Part shown: positions 48,601 through 57,600 of the stretch, piece by piece
Layout: each line of letters begins with the position of its first letter
How positions within the stretch are numbered: the stretch's first letter is position 1
Assembly: GCA_947561715.1 (NCBI GenBank)
Contig: OX387203.1
Span: 18,476,001-18,540,000, forward strand
Source: Ascidia mentula
Taxonomy: Eukaryota; Chordata; Ascidiacea; Phlebobranchia; Ascidiidae
Length of the DNA: 64,000 nucleotides
Direction: 5' to 3'
The notes under the pieces: generated by a model
Told to the model about the DNA's origin: nothing
The model's database searches: none
What the model saw: the letters and a program-made list of their open reading frames with translations, nothing else
Position numbers and translations under genes: made by a program

Positions 48601-51600
48601 TCAAAACTGTCCCAAAATTACGAAAGGACGTTTACCCTCCAAACACTTGCATTTAAAGTCTTTTTCGACTACAATACTTTGTAATCAAGGTCAAAAACGT
48701 CTTTATGATGTCATAACAGTAAAGGCCCGTTTACACTACAGACGATTCCGTGTTTGTTTTATTGTGCGCGCGTGTTGAGTTGTGCTGAGTTGGGAACTAT
48801 GACGTATATGCTGTGACGTAATGAGAATGACTTGCAGTTTTGTACCGCCCAGGTAAATACCACAGTTCTTGGAACGACACAGGAGAATCGCTCGTAAGAT
48901 GCAATTATCGATATCGTGGTCTCACGCGAACGCATAATTCAAGTGTGTATAAATTCCGTAGTCTTGTGGTCTGAAATTATTCTGCATTGGGCTTTGGCCT
49001 AGTGTAGTTTCACCAATCTGTTCTACATTTTGGCGTGCTTGTAGGACCAAAAACGTCTGATTCCCACATATCTGTGTTTTGTCTTGGTGTATTCTGAATA
49101 AAACAAACTAACCCAAGTTTGGTTTATCTGGAGTCTGGAGTTAGGAAACAAATTCAATTGCAGCTGAACACGTAATCAACAAACAAAACAAACCCCAATT
49201 TCTACAGAACATTTCAGCACACATTGATGCGAAAGTGCAAGGCGACTGCTTCAAAGGAGAGGACATATATTATTTTAGTTTGTGGTTGTGTGATGTGACC
49301 GCGTTTGACATGTGAGCGATTGTTTTGAGTGCACGAAATGGCGCCGTAACTAAATTACAAAGCGGTGTGTGGAATGGCATCTCAGCGGGATGCTGCTGTG
49401 GAAAACCATTGTCCTGGTTCAATTATACCATCTTTGTTTTCATTATCTGTAGTGCTACCTTGCGTCGTAAAAAAATATGTAAAACAGTAACTACCTTAAG
49501 TATGTAACACAGCTCATGCCTTAAGTATGTAACACAGTACATGCCTTAAGTATGTAACACAGTACATGCCTTTTGTTGAAGAATATGTACAGCCAATAAC
49601 CACAACTTCAATTTGTACCTATAATAACGCTGGCGGGGCAGAGAAATGCAAGGCAAGAGTCCTTAAAAATTATCATTGTAACTTGTCACTTGCACTTGTC
49701 GGTTTCGTGTTCGATTATTCCAGTCGTGTAAACAACCAGAGGGATGTTAGTTGACAAAAAAAAATCGCCAGTTGACAAAAGTTTAAACGAACGTGACTCG
49801 GCCGCCTTACGAGGTAGCGACTTACTTTTTTCACACAAAGATAGATCACAGGCTGAACTTTCCAACAAAAGAAAAATCAAAAAAAAATTTGCATTAATAT
49901 TCGAATATGAATATGATATGTTTGCTATGCCATAACTATAAGTAAACATCGATTTCCGTTGACATCCTTGAAGGTAGATATTCTTTGGCGTCCATACTAT
50001 CTAAAAATATCAAACTTTTTCGCGAGGAAAAACGGAAAGCTTCTCAAATTTGAAGAATATTAACCATAACCCCCTATACTTTTCCACGTTTTGCGCCCGC
50101 CGCGAAAGGTAACAAAAAAATTCCCAGTTAACAAAACTTTGGCCGCGTGTAACTCTGCCATCTTATAAGCCAGCGACTTACTTTTTTCACACAAAGATAG
50201 ATCACAGGCTGAACTTTCCAACAAAAGAAAAATCAAAAAAAAATTTGCATTAATATTCGAATATGAATATGATATGTTTGCTATGCCATAACTATAAGTA
50301 AACATCGATTTCCGTTGACATCCTTGAGGGTAGATATTCTTTGGCGTCCATACTATCTAAAAATATCAAACTTTTTCGCGAGGAAAAACGGAAAGCTTCT
50401 CAAATTTGAAGAATATCAACCATAACCCCCTATACTTTTCCACGTTTTGCGCCCGCCGCGAAAGGTAACAAAAAAATTCCCAGTTAACAAAACTTTGGCC
50501 GCGTGTAACTCTGCCATCTTATAAGCCAGCGACTTACTTTTTTCACACAAAGATAGATCACAGGCTGAACTTTCCAACAAAAGAAAAATCAAAAAAAAAT
50601 TTGCATTAATATTCGAATATGAATATGATATGTTTGCTATGCCATAACTATAAGTAAACATCGATTTCCGTTGACATCCTTGAAGGTAGATATTCTTTGG
50701 CGTCCATACTATCTAAAAATATCAAACTTTTTCGCGAGGAAAAACGGAAAGCTTCTCAAATTTGAAGAATATCAACCATAACCCCCTTGTGCCCTTGAAC
50801 GCTATAGACATTATTCATACAACTAATTCATTATTTTTTACAGAAAATAATATTATTTTGATGAGGTTTTACGTTTTAGAGTTGTTTGCCACAAAGGAAT
50901 GTTACTTATCAGTTGTTTTCGCAACATTATTTTTACGCTGGACCCTATTAGGCGGGGGGGTATCTGATAAGTCAGTGAGCCGAGTGATCGGAATCAGCGA
51001 GGCTCAAGGCCGCGCGGCGGGCAGAGAGATCGGGGGCTACGAGGCTCAAGATCGGGCGGCGTGTTTTCTGATCGGCACAAATTGGGTAATTATGGATTCT
51101 TCAATATAAGCAAACACAAACAGAAAGTCATTCATTCTCATTGAGAAACCAATTGCAAACGGCGAAGCTACGACATACATTGTTACGAAACAAGCTATGG
51201 AGAAGTCGATTATTCAAAACTGGTTGAATGTTTGTACCCAGCCAAAGGTAAGAACTCTTTTTCGAGCATTGTTTATTGTTAATGTGTATAAATTTAACAT
51301 CGTTTACTTTTTTTGCAGCCATCAAGAGTGGAGAAGTACGGCCTTGGGATATCTGGGAAGCAGACAATGTGGCGGGTTCCCGTCAAAAGCAGCCGGAAAC
51401 GGTTGCTGTACATTTCCGACAGCAATGCTCGGAAATACGTTTCGCCTTACGAGGTGAAACCATCTAATTCTTTTTCTTTTGATTTTGCAGCTTTAAGCAT
51501 GCCTGGTGGTACCATCTGGCATGCAATACAGGAACTTTCTTCATCTCCCATCTTGGAAGGCGTCGAAGTTGTGGTCATAGGGTTTGGCACCAATGATGTT

Positions 51601-54600
51601 CTCGCAATGAAAGGTGACAACCCTATGAATGGTGGCATTAGCGGAATTGTTGGCCGTATGAAAGGTCTTGTCCGATTGGTACGGACACTATACCCATTCG
51701 CCAAGGTATGTAGAAATACCATACATTACTTCGTTAATGCTCGTCAAATACCGTGTGTTCTAAGTATTAAATCGCTATTTCATGTTGCAGATTTTTCACA
51801 CTGGAATATTGCCTTTAACCAAGAAGTCACGTTTGGTTACAACGCTCAACAAAGAGTTGAGTAAGTCAGCAGAAGAAGTGGAACTTCAGTTTATTGAGGG
51901 TGGCATCCCATCGCAGTTACTTAGTAACGATGGGATCCATCTATCAGATGAAGGGCTACGACTCCTGCTCACACATGTGGAAAGGGCTGTCCAATCACGG
52001 GAGGTGGCGGTCAAGGCTATCCAGGATTTTCCCGAATTAAGTGCGGGAACAAAGATGGCGCCGAGTCCACTGTCGGTGAGTACAAATGTTTTTGCCAACA
52101 AAACTATTATGTCGGTGCCAACAAAACTAACAACAATATTTTGCACTAGAAATTCATTGAACAGATGGAACCGGTGAAAACAAAGCCAACATTTCTCGAT
52201 GTTGTTCAGGAAAGGGCGCAGCAGGTAAAATATTAATCTATTATATTATAACTCGCTGTATCTCAGTATAACTTGCATTTGTATTTGCTAGGTAGCTAAA
52301 CAAACTGCATTTGTATTTGCTAGGTTGACAAACCGTCATATGTACGGCTAGCTCCATTACAGCGATCGGCTCCAGAGTACGATTGGCTTCAGAGACCTTC
52401 CCAGATATGGGGAGGAGGAGGAGGAGTACTGGATTCCAACCTGCAGTCGTCCACCAAACTGCGCACCAGACGACAACGGAAAGTGACGGAAGCATCGGAG
52501 TCCGGATGGAAGGTTGTAACAGGACGAGGAGGAAGAACGTCGGGATACTCGAGCAGCGAGGTGTTTCAGCACAGCCCAAAATCTGAGGACACCGAGATGA
52601 CCATCCAAACACCTGAGGACGCCATCACCCCGCTGAAGAAGTGTACGAAGAGGAAGCGGAAGAAGAGTCCCAACGCCAAGAAGACCGCATCACCACGGAT
52701 GAAGTTCACACGGAAGGAAATTCCCGATGCCAAGAACGCCAACTCCCCATCCAAGTCGAGGAAGTGCGAGGGTTCGAGGAGGGAAAGCCTCGATGATGAA
52801 AAGGTCGTGTCGCCGTCGAGAGAGTACGAGAGTTCGAGAAGATACCCCGCTCCACTTTCGAAGTGCGCAAAAGGACAAGCTCGAGGTAACCTAACGGTAG
52901 ACATGTTTGTGTCAGCATTATCCACGTACACTTCATTTGACCCTCACACCCCCTCGTCATGGCATGTATTGATAAAGCATTTTTTTTCCGAAGTCATGTC
53001 TAAAAAAAACGCGATAACACGATTCGAAAACTAAAATACTTCTGGGCAAAACATAAAGAACAAATAAAATATTGTCGCGATTTGTTCGGCGACTGTAATG
53101 TTGATGGTAAAACCGAAAACAATATTAAAGGCGAAGTAATATCTGACGAAATATTTAAACATCAATCCAATGTTGAGCGTAGTCTTGTCGACATAAATCC
53201 CCCCTGTGTAAGCGACGAGGGTGAAAGAGGTGAAGATAACGTGGATAATGCTGATGTTTGTTTTGCGAATCGCGAATGTTCGGAACCGGTGGAATCTGAG
53301 GGGGAACAGGTAACAGGTTTGACTGATGTGCGCGATGATAGCGACGGATGCGATGTTGATGAGTTTTCTAGTTTAAAACGCGAAGCGCATTGGTCTCCAA
53401 GCACTTTCGCACAAAGTGCAAGTTTTACTTTAACTACGGACGAGTTCGATCATATTAGTAAAGGTATTAAAGGTAGATATTGTACAGGAAAGGAATGGCC
53501 GGAAATCATTCGACGCGCATTGAAGGACAGTAATCCGTACTGTTCTTTCGCGGCAAAGGAGCAAAGATGGTATGTCAAGCAAAAAACGGGCCGCTTTTTT
53601 CACAGCAAATTTCGGTGCACATTTGGGACTTGTCACTGTGTGGCATCTATCGACTTGGTTTGTTTGGATAAAAAATATTTTACAGTAAACTATTCATCAA
53701 TTCCTGTTCATCCAACAGGAACAACAAAATCCACCCATTTAAAAGGTTTAAGATTGGAAAAAGTTAAACAACTTGTAACGAATAGTTGCCCCCGCTTAAC
53801 GTACCTTGGTATGCTCGAAAAAATTGAACCTGGCGTCTTAGAATCAGGAAATAGGGATGACGCGCCATCCAAGGAGGTGTTAAAAAAGGCTCGAAACGCT
53901 GCGATCAGGATAGGCGTCCCGTCCAAACAGGAATTAGAAGCGCTTGCGATTATGCAGAATGAACAAAAGGTCGACGGCGTTGCGGTGAAAGGAAAGTTGG
54001 GCGGAACGTTGCAGCATGTCACTTCGACTCCCAGTATCATGCTGTGGTCGCAAGAGACGTTAGAGATTTTCCACGAACGCACTAAACGTGATATAATGTA
54101 CATAGACGCAACCGGCAGCGTGATTAAAAACCGAGGTAACGATGCGCATTTTTACGATTACGAAATAGTTGTTAGAAACCCCAACAAAGGAGAAGCGCCG
54201 TTAGCTGTGGCAACGTACGTCACAAACCGCCATAATATCGCATCAATTTCGCAATTTTTAAAACTCTATAAAAGCGACGAAAATAAATACATCGGTAAAA
54301 CGAACGCAAAACTTATAATGTGCGATAGTTCAATGGCGCTTATTCGTTCAATTTTAGTCGAGTATATGGTCGAGGACTTCCACGCTTATATAGAACGGTG
54401 TTACGCGGTCGTATCGGGAGAAGCAAGTGACAGGCAGTTAAATCAGAAGCCGTTCCTACATTTATGTAACAGTCATATAATGAAAAATTTGAAGCAATTA
54501 TGCGGATTAGTAAAAAAGCGTCGCGCCGAATCGATGTTTATCGTTGGTTTGTTGGTAGCCGCAGAGGGTATGAAGGAAATTGAAGAAATTTTGTTCCACA

Positions 54601-57600
54601 TGACTTTGCTTTATAATTCAAAAGACGCAAATCAAGCTAAAACCAATTGGGATTTGTTAAATGATAAAATAAAGCGCAAAAATGTTGACCCAACAATTAA
54701 TTCAACTGGAACTGTAGAAGACATTGACGATACCTTTTCCACAACCACCACAGATAATCTTTTTAAAGACCATTTTGGACGAGTGATTAACCGGGCTAAT
54801 TTAAATGTCACCCATTCCTTTTCAATTAAAAATGATTTTTATTGTCCCGAATTTATGACCAAATTTTCCGAAAATTTCCTTCCGAAAATACCTCTGTGGA
54901 GCGCTTTACTGTTGGGGGATCTAGGTCGTCACGGAAGTAGTGAACCGTACCGCTCGTATTCTAAATACGTTCAAAAAGTCCAACAACGCGGAGTTGGACA
55001 AACGTTGCTCGCCGATAATCGCACGCAGGGAATCATGGAAAAGAGTCAACAGGAATTAAAGCGGACTCGGATCAACGGCAGAAAGCTTAACGGCCTGCAC
55101 GAATTTGCGAAAATGTACGACGATAAACATAAAGCGCTTATAGTTGAGTTTATGGACAGTGGGTACCGCCGAAAACCCAAGCGCAAACGCGTTAGACAGG
55201 AAGCTGAGGTCGAGGAGAAATGGGGGAAGAAGGCAAAGGTTGTTGGGACGGACAAAAGTATAGGAAGATACTTTCAAAGCGAAATGGATAGGGTACCGAC
55301 GTACACCCCACAAAAGAAGTTTATCCAAATAATTAATGTTAACAGTAGCCATTGGGTAACACTTTCAAATATTTTCGCATTAAATAACCATACCATTCAA
55401 GTATATGACAGTCAGCCGGACAAGTATCATTCGGAAGAAAAATTCGTTATTTCTAAGTTGCTAAATTTAACAAATGCCAAATACATAAATCTGGAATTCC
55501 CAAATGTGCAAAAGCAATTTGGTTCAGGTAACTGTGGGGTGTACGCCATTGCGTTTGCGGTCGCTTTATGTTATAATCACCATCCAGAACATCTAAATTT
55601 TAACGAACCATCGCTGCGAACTGATATAGAAAAAATGTTGCGCAAAAAAGAATTTGAGCCTCTTTTTAAGATGAAGAAGCTTATCGTAAACAGAAGAAAG
55701 AACAGCGAGACGGTTGCGATTCATTGTAATTGTAGACTTGCAGAAAATATGCAACAATATTTTATTGAGTGTAGTAAGTGTAAAGAATGGTTTCATCCGG
55801 AATGTTTAGAGCGCGCCATACCGGATGAAGCTAAAATCAAGGGCGTGCATTGGTTTTGCGGAAAATGTTAACGTATCCAGCGGGATATTGTAGTATATGC
55901 TAAGTGTAGGCTTGTCAATGTAACAAATGTGTAACATTTTTTTAAAGTATTTTTCAGGTTGGTCGCTGGGTTGTTTGTGGCCTATTTGGCTCAAACACCA
56001 AGTCATCTGTGTACCTCCTCGTGGTGCGACTGGAAGCAGCTTCGGCTGACCAAACACAGAGGCGAATTTGACAAAGAGTGTGTATCAGGTTGTTTGATTG
56101 ACGGGATTTCAGCGGTTATTGTTTGTGCAACGTTGCATGGCCGAAACCTGTTCGCGGCGGGCGCAAAACGTGGAAAAGTATAGGGGGTTATGGTTAATAT
56201 TCTTCAAATTTGAGAAGCTTTCCGTTTTTCCTCGCGAAAAAGTTTGATATTTTTAGATAGTATGGACGCCAAAGAATATCTACCCTCAAGGATGTCAACG
56301 GAAATCGATGTTTACTTATAGTTATGGCATAGCAAACATATCATATTCATATTCGAATATTAATGCAAATTTTTTTTTGATTTTTCTTTTGTTGGAAAGT
56401 TCAGCCTGTGATCTATCTTTGTGTGAAAAAAGTAAGTCGCTGGCTTATAAGATGGCAGAGTTACACGCGGCCAAAGTTTTGTTAACTGGGAATTTTTTTG
56501 TTACCTTTCGCGGCGGGCGCGAAACGTGGAAAAGTATAGGGGGTTATGGTTGATATTCTTCAAATTTGAGAAGCTTTCCGTTTTTCCTCGCGAAAAAGTT
56601 TGATATTTTTAGATAGTATGGACGCCAAAGAATATCTACCCTCAAGGATGTCAACGGAAATCGATGTTTACTTATAGTTATGGCATAGCAAACATATCAT
56701 ATTCATATTCGAATATTAATGCAAATTTTTTTTTGATTTTTCTTTTGTTGGAAAGTTCAGCCTGTGATCTATCTTTGTGTGAAAAAAGTAAGTCGCTGGC
56801 TTATAAGATGGCAGAGTTACACGCGGCCAAAGTTTTGTTAACTGGGAATTTTTTTGTTACCTTTCGCGGCGGGCGCAAAACGTGGAAAAGTATAGGGGGT
56901 TATGGTTGATATTCTTCAAATTTGAGAAGCTTTCCGTTTTTCCTCGCGAAAAAGTTTGATATTTTTAGATAGTATGGACGCCAAAGAATATCTACCTTCA
57001 AGGATGTCAACGGAAATCGATGTTTACTTATAGTTATGGCATAGCAAACATATCATATTCATATTCGAATATTAATGCAAATTTTTTTTTGATTTTTCTT
57101 TCGTTGAAAAGTTCAGCCTGTGATCTATCTTTGTGTGAAAAAAGTAAGTCGCTACCTCGTAAGGCGGCCGAGTCACGTCCGTTTAAACTTTTGTTAACTG
57201 GCGATTTTTTTTTGTCAACTAACATCCCTCTGGTGTGTAAACACCGTGTGAGCCAGACTGTGCTGTGCCGTGCCAAACTGTGTTCGTGTGTTAACGGGCC
57301 TTTAGGAATGGGTATTTTTCCTGCAGCGGCGAAACACATCCTTAACACCTGCATTAGTTTATGAGTCGTGCCAATGAAAACAAGTCATGTAGTATTTACA
57401 GACACTTAACACATCTTACACCAATGCAAGTCATAGATTCCTAGTTACGCAATGGATGTCAGTGGTTTCAATCCAAAGAATAAACTAATGCTTTATCACT
57501 TACTAATGAAATTTGCCACAATCTTTGGTTTTCCCACTTTGACAAAAACATTCATCACTTTTATCGGGACAGTCGGTGACGTCATCACACACATTTGACC

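What the first reader, a model, noticed from the sequence alone, without database searches (positions are those of the whole stretch)
49735..57234. Mutator-like transposon combining SGNH hydrolase, DD(C2H)E transposase, Ulp1/C48 peptidase and PHD finger
Seen: exact ends, perfect 9-bp duplication, an empty site in paralogous introns, intact catalytic residues for transposase (D342, D415, C462/H465, E653), C48 (H757, D776, Q812, C818) and PHD, plus all four SGNH blocks. Known: C48-type peptidases occur in some plant Mutator-like and in KDZ/Zisupton elements, and SGNH esterases occur in some LINEs. The four-way combination in one animal DNA transposon is not one I recognise. The SGNH, C48 and PHD parts may act on chromatin or SUMO-like modifiers or envelope-like substrates (inference).
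Basis: partly seen in the sequence, partly recalled or inferred. Interest (0 to 1): 0.9.

Follow-up and report, generated by a model that had tools for sequence, protein, structure and literature searches.

The report
Mutator-like transposon carrying an esterase
This is a real, repeatedly copied animal jumping gene whose transposase gene appears joined to a lipase-like esterase, a SUMO-type protease and a chromatin-reading finger; only the esterase is an unusual addition, and it appears to have been kept for a long time.

Summary
The observation mostly holds. A 7,500-bp DNA transposon (49735-57234) lies between 9-bp duplications, with 1,053-bp inverted ends (99.2% alike) made of 356-bp tandem repeats. 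Three paralogous stretches show the clean empty site, and the genome holds 254 exact element ends (control 0). All named residues are present. Corrections: in 16 copies the duplication is 9 bp in 5, 8 bp in 9, absent in 2. The window copy is damaged: its frame breaks near 53,000 and it lacks 89 codons ahead of the C48 catalytic half. Transposase + C48 + PHD in animal Mutators is already in print. The transposase folds like IS256-type ISCth4. PHD, tandem-repeat ends and duplications resemble Rehavkus (membership untestable). The SGNH esterase is the new part: spliced exons of a sister copy pass the Pfam cut-off and read in frame into the transposase, with dN/dS about 0.18 in exon 2. It recurs in a ~58%-identical family. 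In a deeper family, 9 of 13 giant PHD-transposase frames (1,953-2,596 codons) have an SGNH frame upstream. None of 35 external relatives shows it. Verdict: new variant of a known kind; the esterase's role is inference.

The parts
49726..49734 (.). target-site duplication, left (GTGTAAACA)
49735..50787 (+). left terminal inverted repeat, 1,053 bp, begins ACCAGAGGG, 2.7 tandem units of 356 bp
   Evidence: 99.24% to the right arm; 254 exact ends in the genome
51197..51247 (+). predicted exon 1 (17 codons, start ATG)
   Evidence: length a multiple of 3, followed by GT
51319..51705 (+). predicted exon 2: SGNH esterase blocks I (SDSN) and III (GTND)
   Evidence: splice signals kept in other copies
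51791..52075 (+). predicted exon 3: SGNH esterase block V (DGIH)
52165..52224 (+). predicted exon 4 (20 codons)
52324..53031 (+). predicted exon 5, first part: basic linker and start of the 'TFDP..W' repeat; the frame breaks at its end in this copy
   Evidence: sister copies read on
53082..55871 (+). 929-aa frame: WRKY-type domain, DD(C2H)E transposase, C48 peptidase (N-terminal part missing), PHD finger
55276..55282 (+). site at which a 267-bp in-frame segment (ahead of the C48 catalytic half) present in other copies is absent
55326..55637 (+). C48 (Ulp1) catalytic half, H757/D776/Q812/C818
   Evidence: (E 2.3e-5, residues 749-852)
55725..55868 (+). PHD finger
   Evidence: E 1.3e-6; PHF2-type best by profile of relatives
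56182..57234 (-). right terminal inverted repeat
57235..57243 (.). target-site duplication, right (GTGTAAACA)

Best explanation
A cut-and-paste DNA transposon of the Mutator/IS256 type, most like the poorly known Rehavkus branch, that has taken an SGNH (GDSL-like) esterase into the 5' exons of its transposase gene. Shown: the mobile unit, its ends, empty site and copies; the domains; the esterase beside the transposase in several families. Inferred from sequence: one spliced gene encodes esterase - basic linker - one or two helical repeats - WRKY-type DNA-binding domain - DDE nuclease - Ulp1-type peptidase - PHD finger. Inferred mechanism: the WRKY domain (perhaps with the helical repeats) binds the repeated ends, the DDE core cuts and inserts with an 8-9-bp stagger, the peptidase trims a SUMO/ubiquitin-like modifier from the transposase or a host factor, and the PHD finger reads a histone tail at the target. 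The esterase most likely removes an acyl group or holds the protein at a membrane such as the nuclear envelope, as proposed for the esterase of LINE ORF1 proteins (PMC3905857, passages); I give that role about 1 in 3. The window copy is probably no longer autonomous and would need help in trans.
Against: No transcript was available, so splicing into one protein is unproved; exon 5 could be read from its own start. No single undamaged copy with all parts was read. Exon 3 (dN/dS about 0.47) and C48-PHD (about 0.42) look less constrained. Some transposase-bearing copies lack the SGNH part (L010, L070, L071); 6 of 30 SGNH loci show no transposase or ends within 1.5 kb, and 13 of the 35 further SGNH sites have neither PHD nor transposase listed downstream. 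The esterase's role rests on analogy only. Pfam's MULE model does not match this transposase.
Confidence: 0.8

Rival explanations
1. The SGNH exons are passenger host sequence captured once by the transposon (as in Pack-MULEs or texim-Helitrons) and carried without function.
For: Capture of an SGNH gene by a DNA transposon is on record: texim in fish Helitrons (PMC4021074, passages). Copies without SGNH exist. None of the 35 outside relatives shows it.
Against: SGNH blocks are kept in families A, B and C although exon 2 of A and C differs at about 40% of amino acids; dN/dS 0.18 A-B in exon 2; SGNH sits upstream of 9 of 13 transposases of the far more distant family E as well.
Confidence: 0.12
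2. The SGNH exons form a separate protein (an ORF1 in the manner of LINEs), not fused to the transposase; the two are only co-carried.
For: Exon 5 holds internal ATG/GTG codons. In family E the SGNH frame lies 3.8-5.7 kb before the transposase match, with the PHD match between, and the join was not seen.
Against: In L069 and L043 phase-0 splice signals join the SGNH exons to the frame that runs on towards or into the transposase.
Confidence: 0.25
3. The element is a KDZ/Zisupton or Ginger transposon rather than a Mutator, since these also pair a DDE core with Ulp1 and (one Ginger family) PHD.
For: Ginger1 families carry Ulp1 and one Ulp1+PHD (PMC2836005 Table 1); 8-bp duplications occur in 9 of 16 copies.
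Against: No KDZ or retroviral-integrase Pfam domain is reported at E<=10 (filters drop most matches above about 0.1); fold nearest to an IS256-type transposase; C-x2-H between the second D and E.
Confidence: 0.05

Closest known systems
Rehavkus (MuDR group; Rehavkus-1_TC, Rehavkus-1_HR)
   Same: [quoted passage not shown] A Helobdella robusta protein is a distant relative (P0024); that the _HR family comes from this leech is recalled.
   Different: SGNH and C48 do not occur in the PMC6446971 text by the term search; its table gives ends of 26-400 bp, here 1,053 bp (about 200 bp in the relatives L069-L071); duplications here are more often 8 than 9 bp. Repbase sequences could not be compared.
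Animal Mutators with Ulp1 (hydra, lancelet) and relatives P0001-P0035, mostly fish and tunicate
   Same: Same transposase family for P0001-P0035 (29-48% identity); C48 and/or PHD at the C-terminus in a number of them.
   Different: No SGNH in any of the 35; upstream exons of those genes were not available. Two cichlid relatives carry a Macro domain.
Foldback-type Mutators (Tm1, FB)
   Same: Composite inverted ends of tandem repeats; in Tm1 8-10-bp duplications (PMC3169594, passages).
   Different: Repeat unit 356 bp instead of 13-15 bp in Tm1; the Tm1 transposase is described as Phantom-like; PHD does not occur in that text, C48 and esterase were not looked for in it.
SGNH esterases of CR1/L2/RTEX LINEs, rotifer retroelements and texim-Helitrons
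   Same: An SGNH hydrolase carried by or beside a mobile element (PMC3905857, PMC5408684, PMC4021074, passages). [quoted passage not shown]
   Different: Those are retroelements or rolling-circle elements; here the esterase is linked to a cut-and-paste DDE transposase.

Membership tests
Mutator/MULE superfamily | DDE core with C-x2-H between second D and E | tested here: met
   D342, D415, C462-x2-H465, E653; C, H and E invariant in 6 rows and nearly so in 24. That this is a Mutator mark is recalled
Mutator/MULE superfamily | IS256-like fold | tested here: met
   [not shown]
Mutator/MULE superfamily | WRKY/GCM1-type DNA-binding domain ahead of the core (recalled as typical) | tested here: inconclusive
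   [not shown]
Mutator/MULE superfamily | Match to Pfam PF10551 above cut-off | tested here: not met
   No match for this protein; 2 of 24 rows match weakly, best 0.0014, under the cut-off. A mark of the Pfam model's reach rather than of the superfamily
Mutator/MULE superfamily | 8-11-bp, mostly 9-bp, target duplication | tested here: met
   9 bp in 5, 8 bp in 9, none in 2 of 16
Rehavkus | PHD finger in the transposase protein | tested here: met
Rehavkus | 9-bp duplication | tested here: inconclusive
   5 of 16 copies 9 bp, 9 of 16 8 bp
Rehavkus | Tandem repeats/minisatellite in or next to the inverted ends | tested here: met
   356-bp units; ~204-bp subterminal units in L069-L071 read from the repeated frames
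Rehavkus | Inverted ends of 26-400 bp (PMC6446971 Table 1) | tested here: inconclusive
   1,053 bp in the window copy; about 200 bp match in L069-L071
Rehavkus | Transposase clusters with Repbase Rehavkus sequences | not testable with these tools
   Repbase not held; Helobdella protein P0024 is a distant relative on a long branch
Rehavkus | Host an arthropod or annelid | not tested
   Genome unnamed; host not identified
Ginger1 | Gypsy-type integrase core | tested here: not met
   No integrase Pfam match at E<=10 (weak matches can be lost to the filters)
KDZ/Zisupton | KDZ transposase domain | tested here: not met
   No KDZ Pfam match at E<=10; that Pfam holds such a model is recalled
SGNH (GDSL-like) hydrolase | Catalytic Ser, Gly, Asn, His blocks and family match | tested here: met
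   PF13472 34.2 bits (cut-off 32.9) for spliced L069; blocks SDSN, GTN, DGIH in families A-C; PDB PAF-acetylhydrolase E 0.0025

The most novel reading that the evidence does not exclude
The esterase is not an accident of one family but a core part of an undescribed, deep lineage of Mutator-like transposons. In one genome it accompanies transposases in families A-C (order SGNH - transposase - C48 - PHD) and in a far more distant family E, where in 9 of 13 cases an SGNH frame precedes a single open frame of 1,953-2,596 codons holding PHD then transposase. Such elements would give a DNA transposon the esterase so far known mainly from LINEs and rotifer retroelements, making a shared membrane or deacylation step in transposition testable.
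Probability: 0.4. Interest if true: 0.75.

Novelty: new variant of a known kind. Interest (0 to 1): 0.62.

Why it matters
Esterases of the SGNH type recur in unrelated retroelements and their purpose is unsettled (PMC3905857, PMC5408684, passages). Finding one maintained with a cut-and-paste transposase weakens explanations tied to reverse transcription or RNA particles, and points to a step that both classes may share, such as membrane contact, nuclear entry or removal of an acyl mark. With two apparent domain orders in one genome, it also gives a natural comparison of which parts are needed.

Tried and rejected
Rejected: 'not a real feature' (254 ends, control 0; clean empty site). A link of the low-identity SGNH frames to LINEs: by eye against the 150 best reverse-transcriptase matches (1,254 first-look candidates) the nearest is 7.9 kb downstream on the same strand, at C73:14718376, for one SGNH site that has no listed PHD or transposase; not computed for all, so not excluded. 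Most of them instead pair with PHD (22 of 35) and some with the transposase (9 of 35). Relatives in viral contigs: 54 pattern matches, none confirmed. SGNH in proteins of fusion length elsewhere: 1,648 candidates, none at E<=10; SGNH profile against the 35 relatives, best E 0.11. These searches rest on shared short words or on gene models and do not exclude unannotated exons. The first structure model with 6 rows was poor (pLDDT 50.6) and was not searched. One dN/dS pair (transposase A vs L074) used unmatched frames, gave 29% nucleotide identity, and is dropped; dS for A-C pairs could not be estimated (returned as saturated). The helical repeats match nothing in Pfam above noise. Family D (L073) is a transposase fragment with no SGNH found in 8.5 kb. 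No C48 near family E: 0 of 13 within 8 kb using 56 of the 87 C48 sites in the script; the other 31, many of them partial C1 matches, were compared by eye. pdb_via listed no KDZ or Ginger relative, which excludes nothing. Literature searches: Rehavkus, SGNH+transposase+Ulp1 (18), foldback/NOF (19), six-term SGNH/PHD/Ulp1 (26), Ulp1/PHD/Mutator (27; 25 of 30 listed), SGNH+DNA transposon (50), esterase/CR1 (80), GDSL+DNA transposon (85), esterase domain+Mutator-like (86; 15 of 104 listed): no cut-and-paste transposon with SGNH seen in the listings or passages. No paper was read whole; subscription papers and Repbase are not held.
Full report
What is there. The element at 49735-57234 is a DNA transposon inserted in a stretch that is repeated along the window. 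Its ends read ACCAGAGGG...CCCTCTGGT and it is flanked by GTGTAAACA on both sides. The flanks joined without the element and the second duplication align across the junction to three paralogous stretches; in the two junctions printed, 151 of 161 columns agree and the junction itself has no gap. The inverted ends are 1,053 bp, 99.24% identical, with 2.7 tandem units of 356 bp.

Copies. The 16-base end occurs 254 times exactly in the 196-Mb genome (128 and 126 on the two strands), with no match of the reversed control pattern, about 127 copies if each had two such ends. Where both ends were read in 16 copies, 5 have a 9-bp duplication, 9 an 8-bp duplication and 2 none (for 15, for the sixteenth). 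A number of copies are under 2.5 kb and can hold little but ends.

The gene. In the relatives L069 and L043, the 5' exons carry an SGNH hydrolase and exon 5 runs open from the esterase tail through a basic linker and one (L043) or two (L069) repeats of the form TFDP..W towards the transposase. L043 shows only the start of the transposase frame within the fetched stretch, and the L069 frame ends within the transposase core. In L011/L070 one frame of over 1,200 codons holds the repeats, transposase, a C48 with its N-terminal part and the PHD finger, but no SGNH was found in the 8.5 kb fetched of that copy. No single undamaged copy with all parts was read. The window copy and the locus at C72:4.51M carry pieces of all four; the locus at C67:9.34M carries SGNH, transposase and C48 but no listed PHD. 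Thirteen of 14 readable exon 2/3 junctions have GT...AG, with introns of 71-344 bp; L051 has lost the acceptor. Splicing is inferred, not observed.

State of the window copy. The frame breaks in an A run near 53,000. At about 55,278 a 267-bp in-frame stretch is absent; it encodes the segment ahead of the C48 catalytic half and is found, wholly or in part, in 24 fetched loci, several of them overlapping views of the same copy. So the catalytic letters of all parts are present while the gene as a whole is damaged.

C48 and PHD. Both pass Pfam cut-offs. The profile of relatives finds PHF2-type PHD fingers best in the PDB (E 8e-12). This pairing with a DDE transposase is known: the Ginger paper's legend to Figure 1e aligns Ulp1 and PHD domains of Ginger1 and Mutator transposases and the text cites hydra and lancelet Mutators with Ulp1 (PMC2836005, passages). 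Of 49 PF10551 sites in this genome, 27 have a C48 (56 of the 87 sites were used) and 24 a PHD within 4 kb downstream, and none has one of the 35 transcribed SGNH sites within 10 kb.

SGNH. The spliced L069 domain scores 34.2 bits against the Lipase_GDSL_2 cut-off of 32.9; a composite of two family-C exons scores 33.1. The blocks SDSN, GTN and DGIH are kept in families A, B and C (one family-C copy, L067, reads GTK in place of GTN, and L066 has a stop in exon 2). Window against L041: exon 2 dN 0.020, dS 0.117; exon 3 0.082 and 0.174; A to C exon 2: dN about 0.34, dS saturated. Of the 30 best SGNH loci, 24 show transposase, linker or ends within 1.5 kb; the other six are all of the diverged C type. 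Two other C-type loci do show transposase pieces nearby (L058, L065), and L074 has SGNH, repeats and transposase in the same order.

A deeper family. Searching with the tunicate relative P0001 found, among 49 matches, 13 at 28-30% identity inside open frames of 1,953-2,596 codons with no stop in the match. Nine of the 13 lie 3.8-5.7 kb downstream, same strand, of an SGNH frame. All 13 have upstream of them a PHD match that reports the same frame length, 12 of 13 within 3 kb, so PHD and transposase very probably share one frame, PHD first. Conversely, of 35 SGNH sites transcribed from the 121 (all 33 at 32-38% identity, one at 47%, one at 56%), 22 have a PHD downstream within 8 kb, against none on the other strand or upstream; 13 have neither PHD nor transposase listed. 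Two of these SGNH sites pass the Pfam cut-off when neighbouring frames are added. Their sequences could not be fetched, so ends, splicing and C48 are unknown; no C48 was found near the 13. These searches score only their best candidates, so the counts are lower bounds.

Outside this genome. Two protein searches, each scoring only the 7,997 candidates sharing most words, gave 35 relatives, mostly fish, with tunicates, environmental sequences and Helobdella robusta. A tree of 20 rows, 16 of them relatives, puts A-D together with Styela and three environmental sequences, apart from fish, Phallusia and Helobdella (support 98/96; several long branches, midpoint root for drawing only). None of the 35 shows SGNH, and a search for SGNH in fusion-length proteins gave none. 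Either the esterase was gained on this branch or its exons are missed in gene models.

How it works, by likelihood. Cut-and-paste by the DDE core on tandem-repeat ends is strongly supported by the empty site and the duplications. SUMO/ubiquitin-type cleavage by C48 and histone reading by PHD follow from family knowledge and are inferred. For the esterase, the best precedent is the LINE ORF1 esterase, which hydrolyses esters and binds negatively charged lipids (PMC3905857, passages); a membrane or deacylation role is the leading guess at about 1 in 3. Silent cargo is disfavoured by conservation.

Placing. It works like a Mutator and meets the core Mutator features tested, bar the Pfam match. 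It shares PHD, tandem-repeat ends and (in part of the copies) the 9-bp duplication with Rehavkus, but its ends are longer than the 26-400 bp tabulated (PMC6446971, PMC10218199, passages), and sequence membership could not be tested. Novelty lies in the SGNH part alone.

Noticed in passing
G000 C2:8735077-8741429, C73:9087716-9094068, C72:4750492-4756094 and others: Giant open frames of 1,953-2,596 codons with PHD and a distant Mutator-type transposase, in 9 of 13 cases preceded by SGNH frames; sequences not read.
   Followed up: partly
P0007, P0008: Cichlid relatives of the transposase carry a Macro domain between transposase and PHD.
   Followed up: no
L069, L070, L071: A related element group with ends about 80% alike has a subterminal tandem repeat of about 204 bp.
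   Followed up: partly
L043, L069, L074, P0004, P0028: One or two helical 'TFDP..W...IR.L...W.K'-like repeats ahead of the WRKY-type domain, without a Pfam name; possibly DNA-binding.
   Followed up: partly
G000, 49 sites: A separate canonical PF10551 Mutator group in the same genome, about half with C48 and PHD downstream and none with a listed low-identity SGNH within 10 kb.
   Followed up: partly
L022:684-1304: Several in-frame 20-codon repeats (SREYESSRRESLDDEKVVSP) in the basic linker of one copy.
   Followed up: no
G000 C69:15.13-15.29 Mb: Several near-identical transposase fragments (L073 type) at spaced positions, apparently multiplied with surrounding repeated genes.
   Followed up: no
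P0018: A fish gene model (Pogonophryne) among the relatives also matches TNP-like_GBD and DDE_Tnp_4, which may be a chimeric model.
   Followed up: no
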